Below, in pieces: positions 1,684 through 17,892 of a stretch of DNA of 64,000 bases (positions are counted from its first letter, which is position 1; every line of letters begins with the position of its first letter). The DNA is from Vibrio sp. YMD68 (GTDB lineage: Bacteria > Pseudomonadota > Gammaproteobacteria > Enterobacterales > Vibrionaceae), in the NCBI RefSeq assembly GCF_029958905.1, contig NZ_CP124613.1, forward strand, positions 496,001 through 560,000, given 5' to 3'. Both the position numbers and the translations under genes were made by a program. The notes under the pieces are model-generated. The model was not told where the DNA came from. It saw nothing but the letters and a program-made list of their open reading frames with translations, and searched no databases.

Positions 1684-2913
1684 ATGAAATATTTTGGCAA
1701 GCTATGTCTGTTATTTGCGGTTTGTTTTTCCGCAGTAGTACAAAGTGGAACACTGGTTATCGAGAGTTGGCGTGAAGATGGGGAAATTTGGAACAACAAA
1801 ATTATTCCCGCCTTTAATGCCGTCCATCCCAATATTAAAGTCGAATATAAGCATACTGTAGCGACCGAGTATAACGATCAATTGAATGGAAGGCTTGCAG
1901 GGGGTAATGCCGGCGATATTATTACGTGTCGTCCGTTTGATGATTCACTTAAGTTATTTAATGATGGTCATCTGGTGGATTTAACCGACGTTGACGGCAT
2001 GGAAAACTTCCCCTCTTTTGCACAGTCTGCATGGCAAACCGATGATGGAGCCGTGACTTTTTGTTTACCGTTGGCGTCTGTTATTCACGGCTTCTTCTAC
2101 AACAAAACCATCTTCTCTGAGTTAGGCCTTAAAGAACCTCAAACCGTAGAAGAATTTTTCATGGGCTTAGATAAAGTCAAAGCCAGTGGTAAGTATGTTC
2201 CGATTGCCATGGGGACAAAAGACAAATGGGAAGCGGCAACAATGGGCTTTCAAAATATTGGACCTAACTACTGGAATGGTGAAGATGGCCGTTTTGGTTT
2301 GATATCTGGCGAAGGGAAATTGAATGACCCTGAATATCAAGCCGTGTTTGAGCAGTTAGGCCGTTGGGGTGCTTACATGGGAGATGGATATCAAGATCGT
2401 GGTTATACCGATGCAATAGATATGTTTGCTTCTGGTAAAGCGGCGGTTTATCCAGCCGGTTCATGGGATATTTCTGCTTTTAACAGCAAAATCGATTTAG
2501 GGGTGTTTAGACCACCGGTTAAGAACTCAGGCGATGATTGCTTTATCAGTGACCATACTGATATCGGTATTGGGATCAACGCCAACAGTAAAAACTTAGC
2601 GGAAGCACAGACCTTTATAGACTGGATGTCCAGTGAAGAATTCGCCGGCCTCTTTACCAACGCGTTGCCTGGCTTCTTCTCACTATCGAATCACTTTATT
2701 GACGTTGCTGATCCAACAGCAAAAACTATGATCGCTTGGCGTGATACCTGTGACTCGACCATTCGGAACTCTTATCAGATCTTAAACCGTGGCGAACCGA
2801 GTTTAGAGTTGGAAATTTGGGAAACCAGTGTTGGCGTGATTAATGGTTCAATGATGGCTACTGATGCAGCCAACCGTTTACAACAGGGGCTGCAAGGTTG
2901 GTATAAACCTTAG
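1684..2913 (+). CDS. ABC transporter substrate-binding protein, carbohydrate type
   Basis: Periplasmic solute-binding protein of the UgpB/MalE-like family (COG1653), which delivers a sugar or sugar derivative to an ABC importer. A signal peptide is visible at residues 1-20 (MKYFGKLCLLFAVCFSAVVQ), followed by the usual opening strand (GTLVIESWREDGE). I chose ATG 1684 because AAGGAAGGGAG lies just upstream; an earlier in-frame GTG at 1648 would place the signal peptide internally. Length about 409 residues is normal. No permease or ATPase gene follows, so it is an orphan here. It could serve as a ligand-presenting protein for the upstream chemoreceptor, which is a guess from position. Confidence 0.9.
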   Translation: MKYFGKLCLLFAVCFSAVVQSGTLVIESWREDGEIWNNKIIPAFNAVHPNIKVEYKHTVATEYNDQLNGRLAGGNAGDIITCRPFDDSLKLFNDGHLVDLTDVDGMENFPSFAQSAWQTDDGAVTFCLPLASVIHGFFYNKTIFSELGLKEPQTVEEFFMGLDKVKASGKYVPIAMGTKDKWEAATMGFQNIGPNYWNGEDGRFGLISGEGKLNDPEYQAVFEQLGRWGAYMGDGYQDRGYTDAIDMFASGKAAVYPAGSWDISAFNSKIDLGVFRPPVKNSGDDCFISDHTDIGIGINANSKNLAEAQTFIDWMSSEEFAGLFTNALPGFFSLSNHFIDVADPTAKTMIAWRDTCDSTIRNSYQILNRGEPSLELEIWETSVGVINGSMMATDAANRLQQGLQGWYKP

Positions 2914-3057
2914 CGTTAGCGTGAAACTATAGCGTTAGCGTGAAAATTATAGCGTTAGTGTAAAAATTATAACATTAGCGTGAAAACTTTAGCGTTAACC
3001 TTAAAACTTCAGCTTAAGCGTTAAAACGCTAGCCTTAAAAACGTTAGCCCTAAAAAC
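2912..3057. repeat. Degenerate tandem repeat, about 20-bp unit
   Basis: Starting at the stop codon of the binding-protein gene are six to seven direct units of about 20 bp based on AGCGTTAGCGTGAAAACTAT. The first four units (2912-2990) are close copies; the later ones decay progressively towards 3057. The unit has no coding potential that I can see. It fills the first part of a 405-bp gap; beyond it are a terminator and about 200 bp in which I see nothing else except a short repeated GTTGACGAG near 3211-3231. Confidence 0.85.
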
Positions 3058-7973: not shown

Positions 7974-9002
7974 ATGAGTTCTAATCCGCGGCCAATTCGG
8001 TCGGTACCAACGAACATTATCACGGGTTTTTTGGGCGTTGGTAAAACCTCAGCCATTTTAAATCTAATGCGTCACAAACCGGCTGATGAACGTTGGGCTG
8101 TGCTCGTGAATGAATTTGGCGAAATAGGTGTGGATGGCAGCATCATCCAGGGCCAGTACAATGGAGAGAAAAAGGTCTTTATCCGTGAAGTGCCCGGAGG
8201 GTGTATGTGTTGCGCCGCTGGATTGCCCATGCAAATAGCGCTAGCTCAGTTATTGTCTGAAGCGAACCCTGATCGTTTATTCATTGAACCGACGGGGCTT
8301 GGTCACCCTAAAGAGGTACTTCAAGTGTTGTTATCTAAGCATTACCGAGAAGTCCTGTCACTTCAGAAAACCCTGACTCTCGTCGATGCTCGAAAATTGT
8401 CGGATTCACGCTATACCAGCCACGATACCTTTAATCAGCAGATATCCATTGCTGATACTGTCGTCGGTAATAAATTGGATCTTTACCAAGATAGTGATAA
8501 GAAAAGATTGATCGATTACGTTAAGCAGCATGGGCAACCAAATACTCACGTGCTTTTTTCTCAGCATGGGGAAATCGCATGGGAAGAATTTGTCGGGGAA
8601 ACGCAGTTTGGATCATTCCCTTCGCATCAACATGATAATCAGCATAAACATGAACATAAGCATCAACATAGCCATGCTAGGCCCTTGGTGTCAGACACAC
8701 CCATTCCGGAGTCTGGTTTCATCAAAGCCACAAACCAGGGAGAAGGGTTTCAAAGTACCGGCTGGCGATTCTCACCGAGTAAGGTATTCAGTCGAAAGAA
8801 ACTGGCATCTCTACTTATAGGGCTGAAAGCTGAACGGATGAAAGCGGTGTTTATTACTGACCTAGGTGTCTTTGCTTACAACCTAACCGGTGATGATCTG
8901 ACGGAAGTCGAGTTGGATGATGGTCTGGAAAGTCGGATAGAGCTGATCTCTGACCAAATAAATGATTCTCTGGAAGGAAAACTGCTAGCGTGTCTGATGT
9001 GA
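7974..9002 (+). CDS. COG0523 (CobW/YjiA) GTPase, His-rich
   Basis: G3E-family GTPase of 342 residues, a probable metal chaperone or insertase, often for zinc. Walker A GFLGVGKTS (residues 18-26), the metal-binding GGCMCCAAG near residue 77, the EPTGLGHP switch region and the NKLDL base-recognition motif are present. A His-rich loop (HKHEHKHQHSHA, about residues 222-235) separates the GTPase from the C-terminal CobW_C domain. Start ATG 7974 follows GATAGGAG. It stands alone; the secreted carbonic anhydrase 4 kb upstream is also predicted to need zinc, but no direct link is shown. Confidence 0.9.
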   Translation: MSSNPRPIRSVPTNIITGFLGVGKTSAILNLMRHKPADERWAVLVNEFGEIGVDGSIIQGQYNGEKKVFIREVPGGCMCCAAGLPMQIALAQLLSEANPDRLFIEPTGLGHPKEVLQVLLSKHYREVLSLQKTLTLVDARKLSDSRYTSHDTFNQQISIADTVVGNKLDLYQDSDKKRLIDYVKQHGQPNTHVLFSQHGEIAWEEFVGETQFGSFPSHQHDNQHKHEHKHQHSHARPLVSDTPIPESGFIKATNQGEGFQSTGWRFSPSKVFSRKKLASLLIGLKAERMKAVFITDLGVFAYNLTGDDLTEVELDDGLESRIELISDQINDSLEGKLLACLM

Positions 9003-9071: not shown

Positions 9072-9103
9072 TTGCAGTTCTTTAATGTTGCAGTTCTTTA
9101 ATG
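9072..9103. repeat. 16-bp tandem duplication
   Basis: TTGCAGTTCTTTAATG occurs twice in tandem (9072-9087, 9088-9103) exactly where the duplicated chitinase tail begins. It looks like a junction scar. Confidence 0.85.
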
Positions 9104-9236
9104 AAAAAAGGCTCCCAATTTTAGGGAGCCATTTATCGATTGCTTACTATGCTAACGCTAAGCGTTCACCATTACTGCGGGTTTAGCCCAAGCGTTTGTA
9201 ACACGAGCTTGAAGTTATCTTGGCGCTCTTTAATGG
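9095..9236 (-). pseudogene. Duplicated 3' end of GH19 chitinase locus
   Basis: This 142-bp segment is nearly identical (two mismatches noticed, at about 9110 and 9161) to 16940-17081, which holds the last 65 bp of the chitinase coding region, its stop codon and its terminator hairpin (GGCTCCC...GGGAGCC). Here it has no upstream coding sequence, so it is a relic. The two copies bracket the orphan-toxin array, implying that the array was built or inserted next to the chitinase with duplication of its tail. Confidence 0.85.
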
Positions 9237-9246
9237 AGAACTAACA

Positions 9247-9374
9247 GGGTCAGGTCTTGCCTTTTGCCTTTTTGATGCGGGTGGTCTAGTTTTTTAGCTA
9301 GGCCATTTTTGTTTTTGGGGTGAAGGGGAGTAGGCTGTAATTCAAATTTATAGCAAAACGCAAGACCTGACCCC
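9247..9374. mobile_element. RAYT-type repeat element, copy A (subfamily 1)
   Basis: About 128 bp. The left end is GGGTCAGGTCTTGCCTTTTG; the right end GCAAAACGCAAGACCTGACC is its reverse complement with one mismatch. Inside, GGTCTAGTTTTTTAGCTAGG can form a hairpin. The arrangement of two REP-like sequences in inverted orientation is that of a REPIN or small MITE moved by a RAYT transposase. Right flank TTTATCTTTC is shared with copy D, and its first eight bases with copy E. Confidence 0.85.
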
Positions 9375-9389
9375 TTTATCTTTCTTGGC

Positions 9390-11006
9390 GTGACCGATGG
9401 TACGATCAATCTTGATACGGGCATGCCTAATTACTCCAGTGTCGATGCCACTAAACTTGCGTCAGGGAACCCAAATATTGGTACGCCATGGCAGAGCTTA
9501 AGCCCAGAAGCTATCTTGCAACAAGTCGGTCACTCAGGTATTCAAGCAGGTGTAGACAGCGCTATTAATGGTACCGATTTCTCGGATGGGTTTGTGAATA
9601 GCCTACGTGGCGGTCTAGCCAATAACGTTGGCGCAATTGCTGCCAATCAAATTGGAGATTGGGGTGTCACTCATGGGTTATCCGAAGGCGGTTTCACTAA
9701 GTCACTGCTTCATGGGGTGAGCCAGGGTGCGGTTGCTGAGCTCGCAGGAGGGGAATTCATAGCTGGAGCCGCTGCGGGTGTTGCAACCGAGCTTGCAGGA
9801 AGTACGCTTGGAAATTCGGGCCTTGAAGAAAAAACACAAGTCGATGTGGCTGGGCTTATTGGCGCAGTCGCGGGGGTTGCAGTAACGGGCGATGCTGAAG
9901 GGGCGTATACTGGGCAGAATGCTGGGGGGATTGTTCATCAGAATAACTACTTGAATCACACAGATATTAAGAATGCATTGAAGGATTTTACCGTATGTAA
10001 TGGTAATACTGAGTGCGAAGTTAAAGTAATTGTAGAAGCGAAGATATTAAGTGAGGACAAAGATACACTCGCTCTATCTGACTGTAGTGAAGGGGACTGT
10101 AAACCCCATAGTCGTGATTTAGCGAATGCCACGTTACCTGATAATGCAGATATCCACTATGAGCTGATAGGCGATAGCCAGCGAGCGCAAGAATTCTACA
10201 ACCTGATGAAAAAGGAAAATACTGACTCACTTGGACCAATGACCGATGCCTCCGTTCAAAATAATCTAACGGATTGGGTTACAGCGATGGGCTTTAGTGA
10301 CGATGTTGCAGATATGGCCGTTGCTGGTACTGGTTTATTCGCGGGAATTCAAAAGAACAGTAAGAAAAACACTTCGGGAAGTAATCAAAACGCGGTTTCT
10401 GATGGAATAAATGGGCCGCCGAAGGTTGATAAGGAATCTGATGCTTTACAAAAACCGTTAACTTCAATTGAAGTTAGAGAGGCTTTAGGAGTTAAGTACG
10501 GTCCTAATAATGTAAAATCAACAACTGTCGCTCTAAATCCTCGACAACGGGTTAACTCCGCAGAAGGAATAGATGTAGTGTACGACTCTTATGGGAATAA
10601 AGGAGTTAAGGTTGTTTTTCAAGATCCTTTGACACTAGAGCGTAAATCAGTAAATGTTGCTTATGATAGCCAACGGGGGTTACCTGTTTTTGATGACCAT
10701 TCGAAGTATACTACGAGTATTGTAAAACCCGACGGATATGAAAATATGAGTTCGAATGCTAGGAAGTCGGCTGAGATGAGAGCTGCGACACGTGACCTTA
10801 GAGATAAAATCAACAGCGGTCAAGTAGATAAAAATCAGTTTACTGAAACCCAGCTTAAATTCATTCAAGCTGGAAAAGAAAGTATTCCTAATTATACATG
10901 GCATCACAATGTACAAAGCTCTCCTAAAAATATGCAACTTATTCCCAAAGCGGTACATGATGCAGTTAAGCATATAGGGGAAGCTAGTTTGAGTGAAGGT
11001 AATTAA
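9390..11006 (+). CDS. Orphan CdiA C-terminal fragment with WHH-type nuclease toxin
   Basis: 538-residue frame that continues open into repeat copy A and has no convincing start (GTG 9390 has no ribosome-binding site). Residues 1-180 are Gly/Ala-rich and resemble the late haemagglutinin region before CDI toxins; HQNNYL near residue 185 stands where CdiA proteins carry the VENNYL pretoxin motif. The tail, YTWHHNVQSSPKNMQLIPK then AVHDAVKHIGE (about 505-531), matches WHH-family HNH/ENDO VII nucleases, predicted DNA-cleaving toxins. The SUKH-type gene directly downstream is the likely immunity gene. Without a secretion N-terminus it is probably silent unless recombined into a full cdiA. Confidence 0.75.
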   Translation: MTDGTINLDTGMPNYSSVDATKLASGNPNIGTPWQSLSPEAILQQVGHSGIQAGVDSAINGTDFSDGFVNSLRGGLANNVGAIAANQIGDWGVTHGLSEGGFTKSLLHGVSQGAVAELAGGEFIAGAAAGVATELAGSTLGNSGLEEKTQVDVAGLIGAVAGVAVTGDAEGAYTGQNAGGIVHQNNYLNHTDIKNALKDFTVCNGNTECEVKVIVEAKILSEDKDTLALSDCSEGDCKPHSRDLANATLPDNADIHYELIGDSQRAQEFYNLMKKENTDSLGPMTDASVQNNLTDWVTAMGFSDDVADMAVAGTGLFAGIQKNSKKNTSGSNQNAVSDGINGPPKVDKESDALQKPLTSIEVREALGVKYGPNNVKSTTVALNPRQRVNSAEGIDVVYDSYGNKGVKVVFQDPLTLERKSVNVAYDSQRGLPVFDDHSKYTTSIVKPDGYENMSSNARKSAEMRAATRDLRDKINSGQVDKNQFTETQLKFIQAGKESIPNYTWHHNVQSSPKNMQLIPKAVHDAVKHIGEASLSEGN

Positions 11007-11486
11007 ATGAGTGTAAGTAATCTCACTGTATTTCATGATTTTGGGGAATGTGATTTGAGTATTCTAGAATCGTTTGAAACTAGATTAGGCATTGAATTTC
11101 CCATGAACTATAAAGAATTCATACAAAAACACAATGGAGCTTCATTGGTAAATGAGTACTTTCGCTTCTTTTGTAAACGTCAAGATGTATTTGATTCAAC
11201 TGGTTTCTACTTCTTGGGTTTTGGCTCAAGTGAAGGTTTGATCTCTTCGATTTTGGATATATTAAATAACCAAGACTACGATGTGTACGGATATGAAGGA
11301 TTGGTTTCATTTGGTAGAAATGGAAGCGGGGATTATGTTTGTTTTGACTATAGGAATATCTCCGTAGGGAGTGAACCGTCAATAATCTTTATGCTGCACG
11401 ATGCTTATGATGAAGATGGTAAAATGACGACCTTTTATGTGGCTGAAAGTTTTGATGTTTTCTGTGGCTTGTTATTTGAACTTTAG
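11007..11486 (+). CDS. SMI1/KNR4 (SUKH) immunity protein
   Basis: 159 residues with the SUKH opening pattern: ILESFETRLGIEFPMNYKEF and a following NGASL, then GFGSSEGLI and LVSFGRNGSGDYVCFDYR. SUKH proteins are common immunity partners of nuclease polymorphic toxins. The ATG directly follows the toxin stop codon (TAA ATG), so the two form one unit. Expected to bind and neutralise the WHH nuclease in the cytoplasm. Confidence 0.85.
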   Translation: MSVSNLTVFHDFGECDLSILESFETRLGIEFPMNYKEFIQKHNGASLVNEYFRFFCKRQDVFDSTGFYFLGFGSSEGLISSILDILNNQDYDVYGYEGLVSFGRNGSGDYVCFDYRNISVGSEPSIIFMLHDAYDEDGKMTTFYVAESFDVFCGLLFEL

Positions 11487-11531
11487 TCGAACACGATCTG
11501 ACCAATAGGGTCAATTAAATAGTGAAATAAC

Positions 11532-11610
11532 GGGGTAAGGTCTCGTCTTTTGCCTTGTTGATAAGGGTGGACAGGTTTGTAGCTAGGCCTTTTTTATTTA
11601 AGGGGGGAAG
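11532..11610. mobile_element. RAYT-type element, copy B, diverged left end
   Basis: GGGGTAAGGTCTCGTCTTTTGCC, about 45 bp, then GTAGCTAGGCC, a diverged version of the left half of the element. It leads directly into a decayed RAYT reading frame at 11611, with AAGGGGGGAAG as its former ribosome-binding site. This suggests that the small elements derive from the ends of a full RAYT unit. Confidence 0.65.
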
Positions 11611-11742
11611 ATGAGCAGACCAAAACGCGTTGAGGATGTAGGTCGCTTGTACTAGGTCATCTCTCGAGGTAAACATGTCATCCTATTTACTTAAAAATAC
11701 CGTTCATCACTTTCTTTGATGTCCTACTTGAAGAAAATAAGA
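11611..11742 (+). pseudogene. Decayed N-terminal remnant of REP-associated (RAYT) transposase
   Basis: Reading from ATG 11611 gives MSRPKRVEDVGRLY, stop, VISRGKHVILFT, stop; after a frame change, HFL then DVLLEENK. This is the start of Y1-type RAYT transposases (pattern M-RP-R-x-x-GxLYHVxSRG...DRxxFL). There are two in-frame stops and at least one frameshift, and the catalytic HUH and tyrosine region is absent, so it cannot work. It lies between element copies B and C. Confidence 0.6.
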
Positions 11743-11877
11743 GGGTCAGGTCTTGCCTTTTGCCTTTTCTTAAGAGTGATCTAGTTTTTTAGCTAGGCCA
11801 TTTTTGTTTAGTGAAGAAGATGAACAGGTTACTATTCTAATTTTACTGGCCGGAAGCAAAACGCAAGACCTGACCCC
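11743..11877. mobile_element. RAYT-type element, copy C (subfamily 2)
   Basis: 135 bp with the same inverted ends as copy A. The interior after GCTAGGCCATTTTTGTTT is different: GTGAAGAAGATGAACAGGTT, then ACTATTCTAATTTTACTGG. It shares this interior and the right flank CATATG with copy G at 63813-63948. The GAAGAAGATGA part aligns with the start-codon region of the RAYT remnant. Confidence 0.85.
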
Positions 11878-11943
11878 ATATGTGGTACTGTTGATACACA
11901 AACCGGCAAAACACAAACCGAATCGGGCAGCATCAGTGCTTCT

Positions 11944-14538
11944 ATGACAGTGTATGGCGCCTCTTCAGGTATTAACTTGAATGCCAGCCTTAATCGAAGT
12001 GAAAGTAAGTCCTCTTCCACCACCCACAATAATAGCCAGTTAAGCGGCGACAAAATCTCGATTACCTCGACGCAAGACACTAACATCAAAGGCGCGAATG
12101 TTGACGCCGACAGCGAGCTTAATGTCACCGTGGGTGGCGACCTTAATATAGCGTCAGTTCAAGATAGACACTCATCCAGCAATAAAGGTGCTGGCGTGAG
12201 CGGTGGAACATCCATGGGAGAAGGCGGTGATGTAACGGGCGCTAATGGCGGTCTAAATGCATCAAATGGCCGAACCAGCAGTAAAGAAACGTTACTGACT
12301 ACCTTAACCTCTGGTGGCAACTCGAACATTACAGTAGCGAACAATACCGATGTGAAAGGTGCACTCATCGGCACCATTGATGGTGAAGGTCAAGACCTCG
12401 GTAATCTCAATCTAGAAACCGATACGTTTACTTTTGCAGACCTGACAAACAGTCACTATGAACAAAACCAAAGTATGGGTATCAACAGTAGTGTGGGCGT
12501 GCAAGGTGGTGATATCAGTGCGGAAAGCAATTCGACCTCGCTCCAATACAGCAATAGCTCGGGATACAGCAAGAGCAAAACGTTAGCGACGGTTGGCGGG
12601 GGTGACTTAACGGTCGATAACCAAGAAGATAGCCATGATCTGACGGCACTCAATCGTGATACTGAAAATACAGAAAAAGACCTGTTTGATGTTGATCGTC
12701 AGCAGGGGAATATTGATGTGACGCTGGATCACCGTTTGTTGAGTGAAGAGGGAAGGGCGCAGATTGGAGAAGATGTAGACCGTTCTATCCTCCTAGGTGA
12801 GGCGCTAGTTGAGCTTTCAACCAAAGACTCAGTGAGTGTAGTGACTAATGCTGAAGATGGGCAAACGGGACTAGGGACACATATACAAAGAAAACAAGAT
12901 TTTTACAGTGCAGCGAAAGAATTTTATAACGACTCTTTAAATGCCAAAAACAGAGATATATTGGCGAACCCAGACAATTACTCTTCTGAGGAAAGGCAAA
13001 ATGCTAATCAAGCAATGATAGATTACATTGCAGCATCAATAGGGGTCGAGCCGTCAGACGTATTGTTAGTGCTAAATGATGAGCGTAAGGGTTTCTATTC
13101 TAATGAAACTGATGATATCTACATTTCAGATAACGCAAGTTCAAACGCACAGGAGACCGTTGCTACGGTTGCTAATGAAGCCAGTCACATGATTGATGCA
13201 CAAGAGTTTGGCACCGAAAACAAGTCAGATATTTATAAAGAGAATCGTGAAGAGTACTCAACAATCATTGATGACGCGTTCGCTGACAAGCTGGGATCAG
13301 ACTATGCGAGCAACGGTTACGACCTCTCTACCATTACTCATCAAAACTCGAATACCCAATTGAATTCAATAACTAACAAGCCAAAACAGGTGGACAGTAC
13401 TTTAACGTCGAATACAAAAACGTACGACAGTTTAGATAAAGAGGAAGGGGCAAACAGCCTTGTTCCCGGAGCCGATCTTGTTCGATGGGTAGCACTAAAA
13501 GGCGAGGTCTCTTTAGCCGAGTTAAGTAGCCAAGACAATGCCCAAGATGAGCGAATAGCGGTATTAACGGGAGAAAAGCTATGGCAGTACGGAGAAGAAG
13601 CGGTAGAGATGGCGCAAAAGATGCCAGCAACTATCGAATATTTGTGGGATAACCCAGAAGAGCTCAAAAAACTCCCTGGTCATGTGCAGCAGGCGATTGT
13701 TAATTATGTAGACAGCTTCGGTAACAACATGGAAGCGATAGCAGAAGGTTTAGTAACAAATGAACCTGAAGCGATTGAAGCCCAAGCCCAAGCGGAATCA
13801 GATCTACTGGCTGACTTAACCACGACTTTTATTGGTGCGGGTATAAGTAAGGTAGCGATTACTGGTGGTAAGCTAGTTGTTAAGAAGACGGCTGGGTTGG
13901 TGGATGATGTGCCGACGGCACAGGCACCGAGTGGGAATGGTAGTCTTGTTGGTGAAGGGGAGTTTGAGGTCTCAAACTCAACCACTCGCATGACAGAACA
14001 CAGAGATAATTTAGATACACGACTAGATGATTATATCTATACCCCAAGTGAGAAAGATAAGAACAATCACACCCAAGTAATTGATGATGTTTATGCCAAG
14101 GCAAAATCACAAGATTGGAAGCAAGATGATCCGAAGAAGCCAGAGGGAAATCTAGCACATACGTTTTATCCTATGGATGAATTGTATTTGCATGGTATAC
14201 CAGGAACATTTGAAAAACTTGTGGGTTTAAAAAAAGGCGATGAATTGTCGAGGTTTGTTACTAAAAGACAAGAACCTGATTGGAACTATGAAATTAACTT
14301 GGATGAAGGTAAATACGTGGCCCCAAATGATGGTACACCATACGACCAAAGGGCGCTACCTGGCGATGAAAATCAGCAAGTCGAGATCCGTTTTCGAGTA
14401 ATAAAAGATTTTGAAGACCCAATTATTAAAAGTAAGATAACAGCGTGGTTTAACACCACTGGTGACACTGGAATTCAGTTGAATACACGAAAAATTAGCG
14501 AAATGGAAGATAATGGCTGGATAGAGGTAATAGAATAA
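11944..14538 (+). CDS. Orphan filamentous haemagglutinin/CdiA fragment with TNT-like toxin
   Basis: 864 residues, open upstream to the end of copy C (11878) without a start signal. Residues 1-240 are Ser/Asn/Gly-rich FHA-type repeats (GDKISITSTQDTNIKGANVD, GGDLNIASVQDR). A middle region has VANEASHMIDAQ (about 410-420), like a zincin site with the first His lost. The last ~95 residues, EGKYVAPNDGTPYDQRALPG ... TAWFNTTGDTGIQLNTR ... DNGWIEVIE, resemble the tuberculosis necrotizing toxin (TNT) NAD-glycohydrolase domain, including the GxQ glutamine. Predicted to destroy NAD in a target cell. The next gene overlaps by 1 nt and should be its immunity gene. Confidence 0.7.
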   Translation: MTVYGASSGINLNASLNRSESKSSSTTHNNSQLSGDKISITSTQDTNIKGANVDADSELNVTVGGDLNIASVQDRHSSSNKGAGVSGGTSMGEGGDVTGANGGLNASNGRTSSKETLLTTLTSGGNSNITVANNTDVKGALIGTIDGEGQDLGNLNLETDTFTFADLTNSHYEQNQSMGINSSVGVQGGDISAESNSTSLQYSNSSGYSKSKTLATVGGGDLTVDNQEDSHDLTALNRDTENTEKDLFDVDRQQGNIDVTLDHRLLSEEGRAQIGEDVDRSILLGEALVELSTKDSVSVVTNAEDGQTGLGTHIQRKQDFYSAAKEFYNDSLNAKNRDILANPDNYSSEERQNANQAMIDYIAASIGVEPSDVLLVLNDERKGFYSNETDDIYISDNASSNAQETVATVANEASHMIDAQEFGTENKSDIYKENREEYSTIIDDAFADKLGSDYASNGYDLSTITHQNSNTQLNSITNKPKQVDSTLTSNTKTYDSLDKEEGANSLVPGADLVRWVALKGEVSLAELSSQDNAQDERIAVLTGEKLWQYGEEAVEMAQKMPATIEYLWDNPEELKKLPGHVQQAIVNYVDSFGNNMEAIAEGLVTNEPEAIEAQAQAESDLLADLTTTFIGAGISKVAITGGKLVVKKTAGLVDDVPTAQAPSGNGSLVGEGEFEVSNSTTRMTEHRDNLDTRLDDYIYTPSEKDKNNHTQVIDDVYAKAKSQDWKQDDPKKPEGNLAHTFYPMDELYLHGIPGTFEKLVGLKKGDELSRFVTKRQEPDWNYEINLDEGKYVAPNDGTPYDQRALPGDENQQVEIRFRVIKDFEDPIIKSKITAWFNTTGDTGIQLNTRKISEMEDNGWIEVIE

Positions 14539-15206
14539 TGACATACACAGGGCTTGAAAAATATTTCTCTGCTACTGCAGATAAATATACGAGTAAAGTA
14601 ATAGAGCGATTCATTACGGCCTTCCAGCCGAGCTATAAGTACGTTCATTTCCCTTGGGAAAGTATTGATAGTGATCACAAGATATCATATGAAAAACTAG
14701 ATTATGGGTATGAAACCTATGTGGTCAAACAAGGTAAGCGCGAATTAATTGCTTCTGCATTTATCACATACTTTGTCGTTTTATGGGTGATGCATGAGTA
14801 TTCCGAAAGCCACCCATTGCCATGTAAAGCGAAAACGTGGAAAGACAAAGAAGACTTTCACAAAGCGTTTTTAATATTTAACCGCGAGCTCAAAACTTAT
14901 GAGCAATATCGTCAGGCGCTCTACGATTTTTGTACCACAACCGACAAAGGGCGGTTACGACGTGAATTTATTTTCAGCCAAGAAATGTTTGATGGTCACC
15001 AGTCTATGCAAAAAGAAAATTGGGGAGTCCCGGTAGAAAGGGGGATAACTCAACGTGAACGCATCGAACTCATCAATGGTGTATTTCATATTACTCATGC
15101 CGACAGAGGGGCTGTTACAAGTGTCGATCTCGTTTATGATGCGGAATTGTTTTATAAAACCCGTTTAAGTACTTTTATGCGTTTGTTATTTATATCGAAA
15201 AACTAA
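14538..15206 (+). CDS. Probable immunity protein for TNT-like toxin
   Basis: 222 residues, not a family I recognise. Its start overlaps the toxin stop (TAATG), the standard layout for toxin and immunity genes. A hydrophobic stretch, LIASAFITYFVVLWVM (about residues 70-88), could be a buried helix or a membrane anchor; the rest is charged and aromatic. Function is inferred only from position. Confidence 0.6.
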   Translation: MTYTGLEKYFSATADKYTSKVIERFITAFQPSYKYVHFPWESIDSDHKISYEKLDYGYETYVVKQGKRELIASAFITYFVVLWVMHEYSESHPLPCKAKTWKDKEDFHKAFLIFNRELKTYEQYRQALYDFCTTTDKGRLRREFIFSQEMFDGHQSMQKENWGVPVERGITQRERIELINGVFHITHADRGAVTSVDLVYDAELFYKTRLSTFMRLLFISKN

Positions 15207-15207
15207 C

Positions 15208-15329
15208 GGGGTCAGGTCTTGCCTTTTGCCTTTTTGACGAAGTGGTCTGGTTTTTTAGCTAGGCCATTTTTGGGGTGAAGGGGAGTAGGCTGTAATTCAA
15301 ACTTATAGCAAAACGCAAGACCTGACCCC
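15208..15329. mobile_element. RAYT-type element, copy D (subfamily 1)
   Basis: About 122 bp, close to copies A and E internally (GGGGTGAAGGGGAGTAGGCT). The right terminus TGACCCCTTTATCTTT is duplicated in tandem (about 15323-15354), a slippage-type scar at the junction with the next toxin fragment. Confidence 0.85.
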
Positions 15330-15337
15330 TTTATCTT

Positions 15338-15877
15338 TTGACCCCTTTATCTTTCCAAAATGGAGACCCAGCAAAGACAGTGTTGGATGAGTCTGTTAGT
15401 CGAACAGCTTGGCCTGCCGCTCCTGCATGGAAAGAAGGAACGGAAGTTACTTATAGAAAAATTACTGAACCTGAAGAATTTTATATGGTTATTAATGATA
15501 AGCAGCTAGAGGCTATGACAAAAGCTTTAGAAAAAGGAGATCAGAGTGGAGCCATATCAAAGCTAGGAGCATTTGCCACGAAAAACAAAATTGAAACAGA
15601 GTCAGAGCTAAGAAACTTGCTTGCAGTTAGACCAGATTGGAAACCTTCAGATAAAGGGCTACATCGTATAAAAATAACATTAACAAACGTCGAAATTCGA
15701 GAGAGCACGATTGGGAAAATGGCTGTACCTGACGGTACAATAACAAATGGAGTTCCAAATATAGATACTGTATTGACTGGTGGTGGCCATCAAATACAGT
15801 TTGTGAATAGCCCTAAGGCAAACCAGAATCAGAATATTGATATAGACCTAACTGAAGTGAAGGACCTACTACAATGA
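15338..15877 (+). CDS. Orphan polymorphic-toxin C-terminal fragment, family unknown
   Basis: About 179 residues in frame from a TTG inside the duplicated repeat end (reads LTPLSFQNGDP), with no ribosome-binding site, so it is a displaced toxin tail rather than a stand-alone gene. The core WKEGTEVTYRKITEPEEFYM, followed by a helical part (about residues 45-95) and DTVLTGGGHQIQFVNSP near the C-terminus, is not a family I can name. The single Arg-rich start and late Q could fit an ADP-ribosyltransferase-like or RNase fold, but that is speculation. The following gene overlaps by 4 nt. Confidence 0.55.
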   Translation: MTPLSFQNGDPAKTVLDESVSRTAWPAAPAWKEGTEVTYRKITEPEEFYMVINDKQLEAMTKALEKGDQSGAISKLGAFATKNKIETESELRNLLAVRPDWKPSDKGLHRIKITLTNVEIRESTIGKMAVPDGTITNGVPNIDTVLTGGGHQIQFVNSPKANQNQNIDIDLTEVKDLLQ

Positions 15878-16416
15878 TTAAGAAAATTAGAATGGTATAT
15901 AGCAACTACATTTCCGATAATGGTGAAGTGGTAACTGCCAGGGATTTCGGTATGGCTACACGGGAGGAGGTTAGAAAAGACAAAAAAAACCTTAAACCCT
16001 ACCCCCATAGCAAACCTTTGGGGAGCTTCTGGATTTTGGACGATTGTAGCCCTGTTAACTTTACTCCTAGTTTACAACAAAACTTATCTATTAATGTACT
16101 CGAAGATAGAAGTGGAGTTCTAGTCATTCATGATGTTAATGAAGAAGTGACTGACTGTCCATTCCTCCCCCCCCCAAATAATGCGGCAGTGTTTAATGCT
16201 GACGGTTCACTACGGTTTGTCTTACAAAATCCATTAACTAGTGTCCCAGGCGAGTTGAACTTTTTTAGAGCGGATTCAGTCAAGAAAGAAAATGGTGAAT
16301 ACGGTTTAGGTATATGTATAGCAGTAGCACGAGGTCAAGGACTTGAGTGTTTTCATGTCGATGGTACAACGCCAGATTTAACAACTGTCATTCGTTTTTC
16401 TAAGCCAAACATATAG
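15874..16416 (+). CDS. Probable immunity protein of cassette 3
   Basis: 180 residues; ATGA overlap with the toxin fragment stop codon. Mostly beta-type pattern (GSFWILDDCSPVNFTPS, LVIHDVNEEVTDCPFLPPP, LRFVLQNPL). A run of eight C at about 16168-16175 encodes the triple proline and could be prone to slippage. No family recognised; the immunity role is inferred from position. Confidence 0.55.
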   Translation: MIKKIRMVYSNYISDNGEVVTARDFGMATREEVRKDKKNLKPYPHSKPLGSFWILDDCSPVNFTPSLQQNLSINVLEDRSGVLVIHDVNEEVTDCPFLPPPNNAAVFNADGSLRFVLQNPLTSVPGELNFFRADSVKKENGEYGLGICIAVARGQGLECFHVDGTTPDLTTVIRFSKPNI

Positions 16417-16433
16417 AAGAGCAACAGCCAACA

Positions 16434-16574
16434 GGGTCAGGTCTTGCCTTTTGCCATTTTGATGAAGTGGTCTAGTTTTTTAGCTAGGCCATTTTTGGGG
16501 TGAAGGGGAGTAGGCTGTAATTCAAATTTATAGCAAAACGCAAGACCTGCCCCCTTTATCCAAGACCTGACCCC
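16434..16574. mobile_element. RAYT-type element, copy E (subfamily 1)
   Basis: The element ends at about 16553, then its last 20 bp (CAAGACCTGMCCCCTTTATC) are repeated in tandem to 16580. The first copy of the end reads CTGCCCCC, the second CTGACCCC. The right flank leads directly into a toxin stump. Confidence 0.85.
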
Positions 16575-16575
16575 T

Positions 16576-16635
16576 TTATCTTATTATATTAAGCCTGAGA
16601 ATATTCTGACTGAAGAATTAAAGTTCGAGAAATAA
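16576..16635 (+). pseudogene. Stump of a toxin C-terminus (cassette 4)
   Basis: In the frame entered from repeat copy E the DNA reads LSYYIKPENILTEELKFEK, then stop. This looks like the last ~19 residues of another toxin, everything before having been replaced by the element. It is followed after four bases by a small gene, so the toxin/immunity order is kept even though the toxin is gone. Confidence 0.5.
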
Positions 16636-16639
16636 ATAT

Positions 16640-16900
16640 ATGAAATTTGAAGATACAACTTTTAACAAAGAGCATCGTTTTTCAATTGGTATTGAAAAGG
16701 TGTCAGGTAGGTTTTATTTATCAATCCCTGTAAGTAATTGGATAGTTGATTATGAAGAGTATTATGAAATAGATTTTAATCAATATGAGGCGTATCAATT
16801 AGAACCTTGTTTAGCTAAAGAGTTTGCAGAAAAGTGCCGAAGAAGACAGTGTGATAAATTATTGATAGTTAAACCAGGTAAAAACAGGGGTATAGCTTAA
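16640..16900 (+). CDS. Small probable immunity protein (cassette 4)
   Basis: 86 residues: MKFEDTTFNKEHRFSIGIEK, a strand-rich acidic middle (WIVDYEEYYEIDFNQYEAY) and a basic CRRRQCDKLLIVKPGKN tail. Not a family I recognise. Position after a toxin stump suggests a surviving immunity gene. AT-rich compared with the chromosomal neighbours, as expected of an exchanged cassette. Confidence 0.5.
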   Translation: MKFEDTTFNKEHRFSIGIEKVSGRFYLSIPVSNWIVDYEEYYEIDFNQYEAYQLEPCLAKEFAEKCRRRQCDKLLIVKPGKNRGIA

Positions 16901-16930
16901 AAACAAATAACAAGCTAATAGTAAACTAAC

Positions 16931-16943
16931 GGGGTCAGGTCTT
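16931..16943. mobile_element. RAYT-type element, copy F, truncated left tip
   Basis: CTAACGGGGTCAGGTCT is the left tip of a subfamily 1 element with its usual CTAAC flank, cut off and joined directly to the 142-bp chitinase tail duplication (16940-17081). Confidence 0.7.
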
Positions 16944-16948
16944 TAATG

Positions 16949-16976
16949 AAAAAAAGCTCCCAATTTTAGGGAGCCA
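16949..16976 (-). terminator. Terminator of the chitinase gene
   Basis: Stem GCTCCC (956-961) / GGGAGC (969-974) with a run of seven A on the plus-strand left side, i.e. a T-run for leftward transcripts, 40 bp past the chitinase stop codon at 17017. Confidence 0.8.
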
Positions 16977-17016
16977 TTTATCGATTGCTTACTATGCTAA
17001 CGCTAAGCGTTGACCA

Positions 17017-17892
17017 TTACTGCGGGTTTAGCCCAAGCGTTTGTAACACGAGCTTGAAGTTATCTTGGCGCTCTTTAATGGCATGAACATCGCCACTAAC
17101 CGGACAAGTACTGTCAGGGCAGCCTCGGTTAACTATGCCCGATACGGCATCGATAAATGCGGTACCGTTAAGGCCACCATCAACGTATGCCTTCAGTTCT
17201 GCGTGATAGTTCCAATCTGCATAGGCACCACCTTCATCGTTGTAGGCCTGAACAGAAGTAACCCAATAGAATAGACCAGCAATCCACTTAATCTCTCGGT
17301 TTTCTTCTGAGCTACAAATTAGCCCAGGGTTCGAACAAAAATCGAGATCGGCATACAATGGACTTGTTGGTGGCGCTTCCACAGTGACGCCGTTGACTGT
17401 TGTACCAACGGTGCCAGGGTCAACATGAGAGCGTCCCATGAAGTGGTTCAATGTACCGAAGTTTTGACGACCAGTAGTTTGAATAACACCACGACCCCAC
17501 CAGCCACAACCTTCGACTGTGCCGTTAGTATCGGTACCATCCCAAATGAACTTACCAGCTTTTTGTTCTTCGTAGACTTTACATTCGTCACGTTCCCAAA
17601 CTTGCTTGGAAGAGTCGATTGCAGTTGGTACATCCATACAGTGACCATCGTTTGTCCAGCGGCCCACGTTGCCATTTACTAACAGACCTTGCTCTTCAAA
17701 CACAGAGTCTGGAGCGGCAAAGATAGGAGCAGGTGCGCCATACCATTTGGCATTAGTGATTGCACTGACTTCCATTTTCGGGTCGCGAGGACAAGAGTAA
17801 GGGTGGTCGACGCCAGTGACTGGGTCCATGCCGTAATCAGCGTATTTCTGATCCAATTGTAGCGCGACATTTATTTTGCGAACGATTGACAC
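17017..17892 (-). pseudogene. GH19 chitinase, C-terminal part cut off by prophage
   Basis: From 17852 leftward this is the C-terminal 278 codons of the chitinase whose N-terminal part is at 49507-51265. It contains the second half of the GH19 catalytic domain (GRGVIQTTGRQNFGTLNHFM) and a cysteine-rich end. The first ~13 residues of the frame (MSIVRKINVAL) come from prophage end DNA, so there is no native start. Joining 51265-49507 to 17852-17017 gives 2595 nt, exactly 865 codons, across the shared sequence Q-L-D-Q at the junction. The gene is broken in this genome. Confidence 0.9.
17853..17857. repeat. 5-bp target-site duplication, left copy (CCAAT)
   Basis: CCAAT precedes the first prophage base (TGT at 17858). 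The same five bases follow the last prophage base at 49507-49511. A 5-bp duplication is the Mu-type signature. Confidence 0.9.

What the first reader, a model, noticed from the sequence alone, without database searches (positions are those of the whole stretch)
9095..17081. Array of orphan CdiA toxin/immunity cassettes separated by RAYT-type repeat elements
Three toxin C-termini and one toxin stump, each followed at 0-4 bp by an immunity-type gene, lie head to tail. Each toxin frame is entered directly from the right end of a GGGGTCAGGTCTTGC element, and each immunity gene is followed closely by the left end of the next one. No TPS domain, TpsB/CdiB or promoter is present. The repeats therefore act as cassette borders, giving shared homology through which a silent toxin module could be swapped onto a full cdiA elsewhere. 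Orphan cdiA-CT/cdiI modules are known; borders made of RAYT/REPIN elements, working like a cassette library, are to my knowledge not well described.
Basis: partly seen in the sequence, partly recalled or inferred. Interest (0 to 1): 0.85.

Follow-up and report, generated by a model that had tools for sequence, protein, structure and literature searches.

The report
Toxin-immunity cassettes bordered by transposon ends
In a Vibrio-group bacterium, four toxin/antidote gene modules stand in a row with copies of one small transposon-like element between them, and related species carry such elements around the same or similar modules, which suggests that these elements help antidote and toxin genes to spread and collect.

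Summary
Four modules lie head to tail between same-oriented elements of about 140 bp: DNase-type CdiA-CT + SUKH, TNT-type CT + immunity, a 5'-truncated CT + immunity, and a toxin stump + immunity. The elements are miniature forms of a RAYT transposon of this genome. A 146-bp direct repeat encloses the array. The elements really are module borders: the TNT module occurs in 2 of 329 family genomes, here and in Vibrio amylolyticus, each time between these elements, at different loci; an LE-parDE-LE-RAYT unit sits at unrelated loci in three species, 94-96% identical, starting at the element end. The swap-library idea is not supported here: no second homologue of the CdiA fragments, variable borders in CdiA, toxins eroded while immunity genes stay open. 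I favour an element-bounded array kept mainly for immunity. RAYT catalysis is inferred, not shown; many such elements stand beside ordinary genes. New variant of a known kind.

The parts
9091..9236 (.). left copy of the 146-bp direct repeat (3' end and terminator of the GH19-like gene fragment)
   Evidence: 98% identical to 16936-17081
9239..9382 (+). element 1 (LE-RE, RAYT-derived miniature element)
   Evidence: 97% to an element in the V. amylolyticus array
9390..11006 (+). cassette 1: CdiA C-terminal fragment, DUF637 plus Colicin-DNase/WHH nuclease
   Evidence: Pfam
11007..11486 (+). cassette 1 immunity gene, SUKH-1/SMI1-KNR4 family
   Evidence: Pfam
11530..11720 (+). degenerate LE followed by a relic of the RAYT gene start
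   Evidence: tblastn 11611-11673, 62% over 21 aa, E 0.018
11734..11882 (+). element 2
   Evidence: 89% to the element in front of the same toxin in V. amylolyticus
11896..14538 (+). cassette 2: CdiA fragment (Fil_haemagg_2) plus TNT-type toxin domain (from about 13990)
   Evidence: Pfam; first 295 residues 77% to residues 2056-2370 of a full CdiA in G196
14538..15206 (+). cassette 2 immunity gene; its stop codon lies in the flank of the LE
15200..15340 (+). element 3
15335..15877 (+). cassette 3: CdiA-CT fragment, entered inside a stretch conserved upstream in homologues
   Evidence: 72% to residues 683-855 of an 855-aa CdiA fragment in another genus
15874..16416 (+). cassette 3 immunity gene
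   Evidence: 71% to the paired gene in L173
16425..16582 (+). element 4 (with a repeated RE end)
16571..16633 (+). cassette 4: toxin stump, about the last 19 residues
   Evidence: frame reading; resemblance to the end of a Rahnella CdiA-type gene judged by eye
16640..16900 (+). cassette 4 immunity gene
   Evidence: homologues behind CdiA- or Rhs-type genes in two records
16931..16942 (+). partial LE joined to the right copy of the direct repeat
16936..17081 (.). right copy of the 146-bp direct repeat, continuous with the GH19-like gene fragment

Best explanation
The array is a set of toxin/immunity modules bounded by ends of a RAYT-family (HUH, Y1) transposon. A module becomes mobile when one element copy lies behind its immunity gene and another end becomes joined somewhere in the toxin gene; the stretch between same-oriented elements then behaves as a unit that can be placed next to an existing element, so single elements separate the modules. 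Further joins and deletions at element ends erode toxins from the 5' side; selection keeps the immunity gene, so the array serves mainly as an immunity collection. Shown: kinship of elements and RAYT, a module shared between species at different loci and element-bounded in both, one orientation, and one LE-parDE-RAYT unit at three unrelated loci. Inferred: RAYT catalysis, a circular or single-strand intermediate, growth by insertion or recombination at an existing element, and the immunity benefit.
For: RAYT: NCBIfam REP_Tyr_transpos 83.3 bits, cut-off 80; Pfam Y1_Tnp 60.7 bits, cut-off 23. The RAYT leader is the LE of the elements. TNT module: 2 of 329 family genomes, 100% in protein, 98.3% in DNA over 1279 aligned columns that include about 50 bp of element; different loci, and the GH19 site of V. 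amylolyticus has a 915-aa frame, no cassette match and no element end. LE-parDE-LE-RAYT unit: about 890 bp, 94-96% in three species; on both strands only element repeats match besides it in the 8-15 kb compared. V. amylolyticus also has AHH + Imm11 between elements with a full RAYT behind, at the start of another contig (that the two contigs adjoin is not shown). One orientation: 4 of 4 complete elements plus two LE remnants in the array, 3 of 3 on C2, 5 LE ends in L117 and 2 in L120. RAYT relic between cassettes 1 and 2. Hand count of gene-bearing segments between element ends in Vibrio genomes: 10 of 25 hold a recognised toxin/immunity or TA module (see full report).
Against: No excision, circle or empty site was seen. 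Both borders of the TNT module differ between the two genomes, so it did not simply move with fixed ends. The right end of the parDE unit is cut inside RAYT in two of three genomes. Many elements stand beside ordinary genes, and 15 of 25 counted segments hold no recognised module. Of five full RAYTs at 74% or more, three lie next to toxin/TA modules, two do not. A CT3 array in another genus has no element. The count is not independent (three parDE copies, two TNT copies) and has no control set. Immunity function and expression are untested.
Confidence: 0.55

Rival explanations
1. Graveyard: an ordinary orphan CDI array or former cdi locus into which a miniature element inserted repeatedly, with deletions at element ends; the elements had no role in bringing the modules.
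For: Orphan arrays without elements exist (L173; Poole 2011, passages, which also report orphan modules interrupted by IS and transposon genes). Toxins are eroded; the GH19-like gene is a fragment. Elements are also common beside ordinary genes.
Against: All elements of the array share one orientation. The same TNT module is element-bounded at a different locus in another species. The parDE unit has an element end as its left limit at three loci. Elements also bound Fic and AHH/Imm11 modules.
Confidence: 0.25
2. Recombination at shared elements: modules arrive by transformation and homologous or homology-facilitated recombination, the elements being only dispersed homology, as in displacement models for Vibrio T6SS immunity arrays.
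For: Direct repeats at both arrays of this genome (146 bp here; 368 aligned columns at 94.6% on C2) fit integration of a repeat-bearing molecule. Kirchberger 2017 (passages) describes immunity arrays by displacement and frequent recombination in V. cholerae.
Against: The displacement model leaves immunity genes behind an effector locus; none is seen in the window stretch studied. The sharp LE start of the parDE unit at unrelated loci is hard to get by homology alone.
Confidence: 0.15
3. The first reader's silent cassette library that is swapped onto a full cdiA.
For: In G196 (full cdiBAI) and V. pacinii (cdiA frame of at least 2181 aa) an element lies 25-26 nt behind the immunity-type gene; the CdiA part of cassette 2 is 77% identical to the G196 CdiA.
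Against: No second homologue of the CdiA fragments in this genome; no element near the toxin junction in those cdiA genes; variable borders; cassettes 3 and 4 have truncated toxins.
Confidence: 0.05

Closest known systems
Orphan cdiA-CT/cdiI arrays (Poole et al. 2011, PMC3150448, passages read)
   Same: Toxin C-termini mostly without starts, each followed by an immunity gene, variable lengths of CdiA sequence, arrays
   Different: Those in the passages lie behind cdiBAI loci; here no such locus was found and each module is bordered by one element family
T6SS immunity gene arrays of V. cholerae (Kirchberger et al. 2017, PMC5361080, passages read)
   Same: Vibrio, rows of immunity genes with displaced effectors
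   Different: Tied to T6SS clusters and explained by displacement without specific integration sites; no element borders in the passages read
rAID arrays of Bacteroidales (described in PMC12247911, passages read)
   Same: Arrays of co-oriented orphan immunity genes, conserved intergenic motifs, a recombinase gene, SUKH immunity
   Different: A tyrosine recombinase rather than a HUH Y1 enzyme; T6SS rather than CdiA/Rhs; no toxin pieces mentioned in the passages read
bcpAIOB composite transposon/translocatable unit of Burkholderia thailandensis (PMC6350997, passages read)
   Same: CDI genes carried between element copies; a unit that inserts next to an existing copy
   Different: ~210 kb, IS2-like elements, complete CDI operon, shown by experiment
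RAYT/REPIN (TnpA-REP) systems (PMC6006769, passages read)
   Same: Y1 HUH enzyme and miniature palindromic elements related to the ends of its locus
   Different: [quoted passage not shown] here gene modules lie between the elements and one unit with RAYT and parDE is at several loci

Membership tests
RAYT (REP-associated tyrosine transposase) | Match to the family model over its cut-off | tested here: met
   NF047646 83.3 bits, cut-off 80; Y1_Tnp 60.7 bits, cut-off 23
RAYT (REP-associated tyrosine transposase) | Short palindromic elements related to the ends of the RAYT locus in the same genome | tested here: met
   RAYT leader equals the LE of the elements; the three folded elements pair end to end over 14-15 bp, z -3.7 to -4.1
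RAYT (REP-associated tyrosine transposase) | GT[AG]G tetranucleotide at the foot of the hairpin (canonical REPs) | tested here: not met
   LE flanks of the window elements read CTAAC, CCAAC or ATAAG before the GGG; among 29 distinct LE flanks GTAG stands there only at the RAYT locus. So the window copies are not filed as canonical REPs
Orphan cdiA-CT/cdiI module | CdiA C-terminal fragment followed by an immunity gene, no TPS domain | tested here: met
   for cassettes 1-3; cassette 4 has only a stump and a CdiI/RhsI-like gene
Orphan cdiA-CT/cdiI module | Functional toxin/immunity pair | not testable with these tools
   needs co-expression
Composite transposon / translocatable unit | Module between same-oriented copies of one element | tested here: met
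Composite transposon / translocatable unit | Same unit with the same ends at different sites | tested here: inconclusive
   Met on the left end for the parDE unit, right end cut inside RAYT in two of three; the TNT module has different borders in the two genomes
Composite transposon / translocatable unit | Transposase-dependent movement or circle | not testable with these tools
   needs experiment
Integron | IntI integrase and attC sites | not tested
   No search for IntI or attC was run

The most novel reading that the evidence does not exclude
A RAYT works as an integron-like collector: its element ends take up and add toxin-immunity, toxin-antitoxin and defence modules one after another, forming arrays with a RAYT close by (as in V. 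amylolyticus), and spread them among marine and sediment bacteria. A sediment gammaproteobacterium contig, where one segment between element motifs holds a ParDE pair and the next a HepT-like gene and an MqsA-type antitoxin gene, would be another case.
Probability: 0.22. Interest if true: 0.9.

Novelty: new variant of a known kind. Interest (0 to 1): 0.66.

Why it matters
How orphan toxin/immunity modules move between loci and species is not settled. RAYTs are described as domesticated transposases (abstract start of PMC8266576 in the listing) and REPtrons as not transposing as a unit (PMC6006769, passages). Here one RAYT subfamily and its miniature elements border such modules in several species, so a defined enzyme, defined ends and defined modules can be tested.

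Tried and rejected
Swap library: rejected for this genome (above). Tandem copying of one local element: rejected as the sole cause; elements of the array fall in different subfamilies (1, 3, 4 against 2; identities). Ancestral site: of 20 fetched GH19 neighbourhoods (two with under 1.1 kb downstream) 2 have cobW near the gene with another gene between; no clean empty site was found. Whole-genome TPS search: uninformative. PDB sequence searches for three toxin domains: no match at the limits used. Plasmid searches: I2 no match; RAYT one Legionella record at 56.5%. Papers: ten searches, several listing only part of the papers found (25 of 108, 10 of 94, 10 of 67); nothing in the listings or passages seen described RAYT-bordered toxin/immunity cassettes; the library holds open-licence papers only. 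No structure was predicted.
Full report
What is there. The window is C1:496001-560000 of a 4.85-Mb genome in three contigs. Between a cobW-type gene (7974-9002) and a 3' fragment of a GH19-like gene (17017-17892, minus) lie four modules. Coordinates and distances are, domains. Each toxin frame starts at the right end (RE) of an element and each immunity gene ends 1-45 nt before a left end (LE), the one after cassette 1 being degenerate.

The elements. Four complete elements (about 140 bp), a degenerate LE and a partial LE stand in one orientation. The three that I folded as single strands pair end to end with z-scores of -3.7 to -4.1. The genome has one full RAYT gene at C1:1175640-1176467, over the NCBIfam cut-off. 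Its leader is the same LE, and three 5' partial RAYT copies stand in tandem before it, each with an LE. The window elements are therefore miniature forms of that transposon. A relic of the RAYT start lies between cassettes 1 and 2 (weak, E 0.018, but in the expected place behind a degenerate LE). The GTAG foot of canonical REPs is absent from the window copies, so I do not call them canonical REPs.

The same module and elements elsewhere. The element-end motif is in 43 of 227 genus genomes, with none for the reversed control; this genome has 22 places, V. amylolyticus 14. The TNT toxin occurs in 2 of 329 family genomes searched: here and in V. amylolyticus, identical in protein, 98.3% in DNA over 1279 aligned columns that include about 50 bp of element. 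There it stands in another array with further small unannotated genes between elements; at the start of another contig an AHH nuclease + Imm11 pair lies between elements, followed by a full RAYT; that the contigs adjoin is not shown. Both junctions of the TNT module differ: here 2.1 kb of CdiA sequence precede the toxin domain, there the last CCCC of the RE stands 11 nt before the toxin's ATG; here the flank of the LE supplies the immunity stop codon, there the LE stands 18 nt behind it. Element ends were thus joined to this module more than once, or the joins were changed later.

A moving unit. An LE-parDE-LE-RAYT(5') stretch of about 890 bp is 94-96% identical in this genome, in G166 and in V. 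amylolyticus; on both strands nothing else but element repeats matches in the 14, 15 and 8 kb compared. Homology starts at the LE. In G166 the RAYT is full; in the other two it is cut. This is my best evidence that an element end bounds a mobile unit with a toxin-antitoxin passenger (ParE over its Pfam cut-off in the G166 copy).

Second array in this genome. On C2 a Fic-type gene lies between two elements, followed by a repeat of the 3' end of the neighbouring DUF2798 gene (Pfam), a third element, and a Gabija helicase gene (GajB model 638 bits) with only a short frame before it. The direct repeat, element included, is 368 aligned columns at 94.6%. The window array likewise lies between 146-bp repeats of the GH19 gene end at 98%. 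I cannot say whether this comes from integration of a repeat-bearing circle or from template switching.

cdiA loci elsewhere. In G196 a locus of cdiB (ShlB and POTRA_2), cdiA (2724 aa, FHA N-terminal domain) and an immunity-type gene is followed 26 nt later by an LE; its CdiA is 77% identical to the CdiA part of cassette 2. In V. pacinii a full RAYT transposon begins 25 nt behind the immunity-type gene of a cdiA frame of at least 2181 aa whose start lies outside the fetched stretch. Modules could thus be picked up from loci that already have an element behind the immunity gene. Neither has an element near the toxin junction.

How common is the link? By hand, and the fetched loci, I listed gene-bearing segments between two element ends 250-3600 bp apart in Vibrio genomes, RAYT segments left out: 8 in this genome, 5 in V. 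amylolyticus, 1 in G166, 1 in V. pacinii, 3 in G024, 3 in G138, and four with weaker end matches (two in G099, one in G138, one in G225). Ten of the 25 carry recognised modules: the four here, TNT and AHH/Imm11 in V. amylolyticus, Fic, and three parDE copies. Fifteen do not: a gene fragment, a lipoprotein-like gene, chemotaxis, transport and metabolic genes, and unannotated small genes (two are copies of one DUF5992-like gene of G024, below the Pfam cut-off). The entries are not independent, 43 genomes carry the motif but not all places were fetched, and there is no matched control. Of five full RAYTs at 74% identity or more, three lie next to toxin or TA modules (V. amylolyticus, G166, V. pacinii) and two do not (own genome, G215). 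Many single elements have ordinary neighbours. Outside Vibrio (32 stretches, Vibrio included), a sediment gammaproteobacterium contig has one segment with a ParDE pair and the next with a HepT-like gene and an MqsA-type antitoxin (a RelE match beside it is below the cut-off); a Syntrophus bin has an AbiEii gene next to an element and a Pseudoalteromonas contig a Scabin-like gene between a RAYT and another element end; the Legionella, Limnohabitans and Aminicenantes stretches show ordinary neighbours by eye.

Reading. That element ends border modules, and that one such unit has moved, is well supported; the enzyme's part is inference. Cassettes 1 and 2 keep their matched toxin domains, 3 is entered inside a conserved stretch, 4 has about 19 residues left, yet all four immunity ORFs are open. 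This fits retention for immunity, as discussed for orphan CDI modules (PMC3150448, passages) and for V. cholerae T6SS arrays (PMC5361080, passages); function was not tested. The swap-library idea lacks its acceptor: both CdiA fragments find only themselves in the genome. A more divergent cdiA is not excluded, since the TPS search had silent controls.

Novelty. Orphan arrays, immunity arrays, a CDI composite transposon and RAYT elements are each known. Their combination, one RAYT element family bordering CdiA, parDE and Fic modules in several species, I did not find in ten paper searches of an open-licence library, part of whose hits were listed. I rate it a new variant of a known kind.

Noticed in passing
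window 2901-3043: Tandem units of about 20 bp directly behind ORF 1648-2913.
   Followed up: no
window 17017-17892 (minus): 3' fragment of a GH19-like gene (class recalled and by neighbours, no Pfam hit); residues 12-291 match frames of mostly 870-1240 aa in 57 other of 227 genomes, and it is the only match in this genome.
   Followed up: partly
L027 3638-5834 (own genome C1:1175.6-1177.8k): RAYT gene preceded by three tandem 5' partial copies, each led by its own LE, with junctions at different RAYT positions.
   Followed up: partly
L028 7614-11214 (own genome C2): Fic-type gene and a Gabija GajB gene with only a short upstream tail beside elements, with a repeated 3' end of a DUF2798 gene.
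   Followed up: partly
L167 4639-7159 (JAMCWB010000063.1): Sediment gammaproteobacterium contig: a ParDE pair in one segment between element motifs, a HepT-like gene and an MqsA-type antitoxin in the next.
   Followed up: partly
L146 689-2401 (Pseudoalteromonas sp. S16_S37) and L150 1986-3357 (Syntrophus bin): Scabin-like gene between a RAYT and another element end; AbiEii gene (and a sub-cut-off AbiEi match) next to an element.
   Followed up: partly
L186 1149-6141 (V. pacinii) and L189 6298-7692 (G138): GajA and HipA_C-domain genes on either side of elements; a PtuA-model ATPase about 400 bp from an element.
   Followed up: no
L178 2525-3409 and L029 7137-8252: An element end stands behind a lysR-type gene in two species, 2 nt and about 170-190 nt away; the two LysR proteins are 73% identical: possibly a preferred site.
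   Followed up: partly
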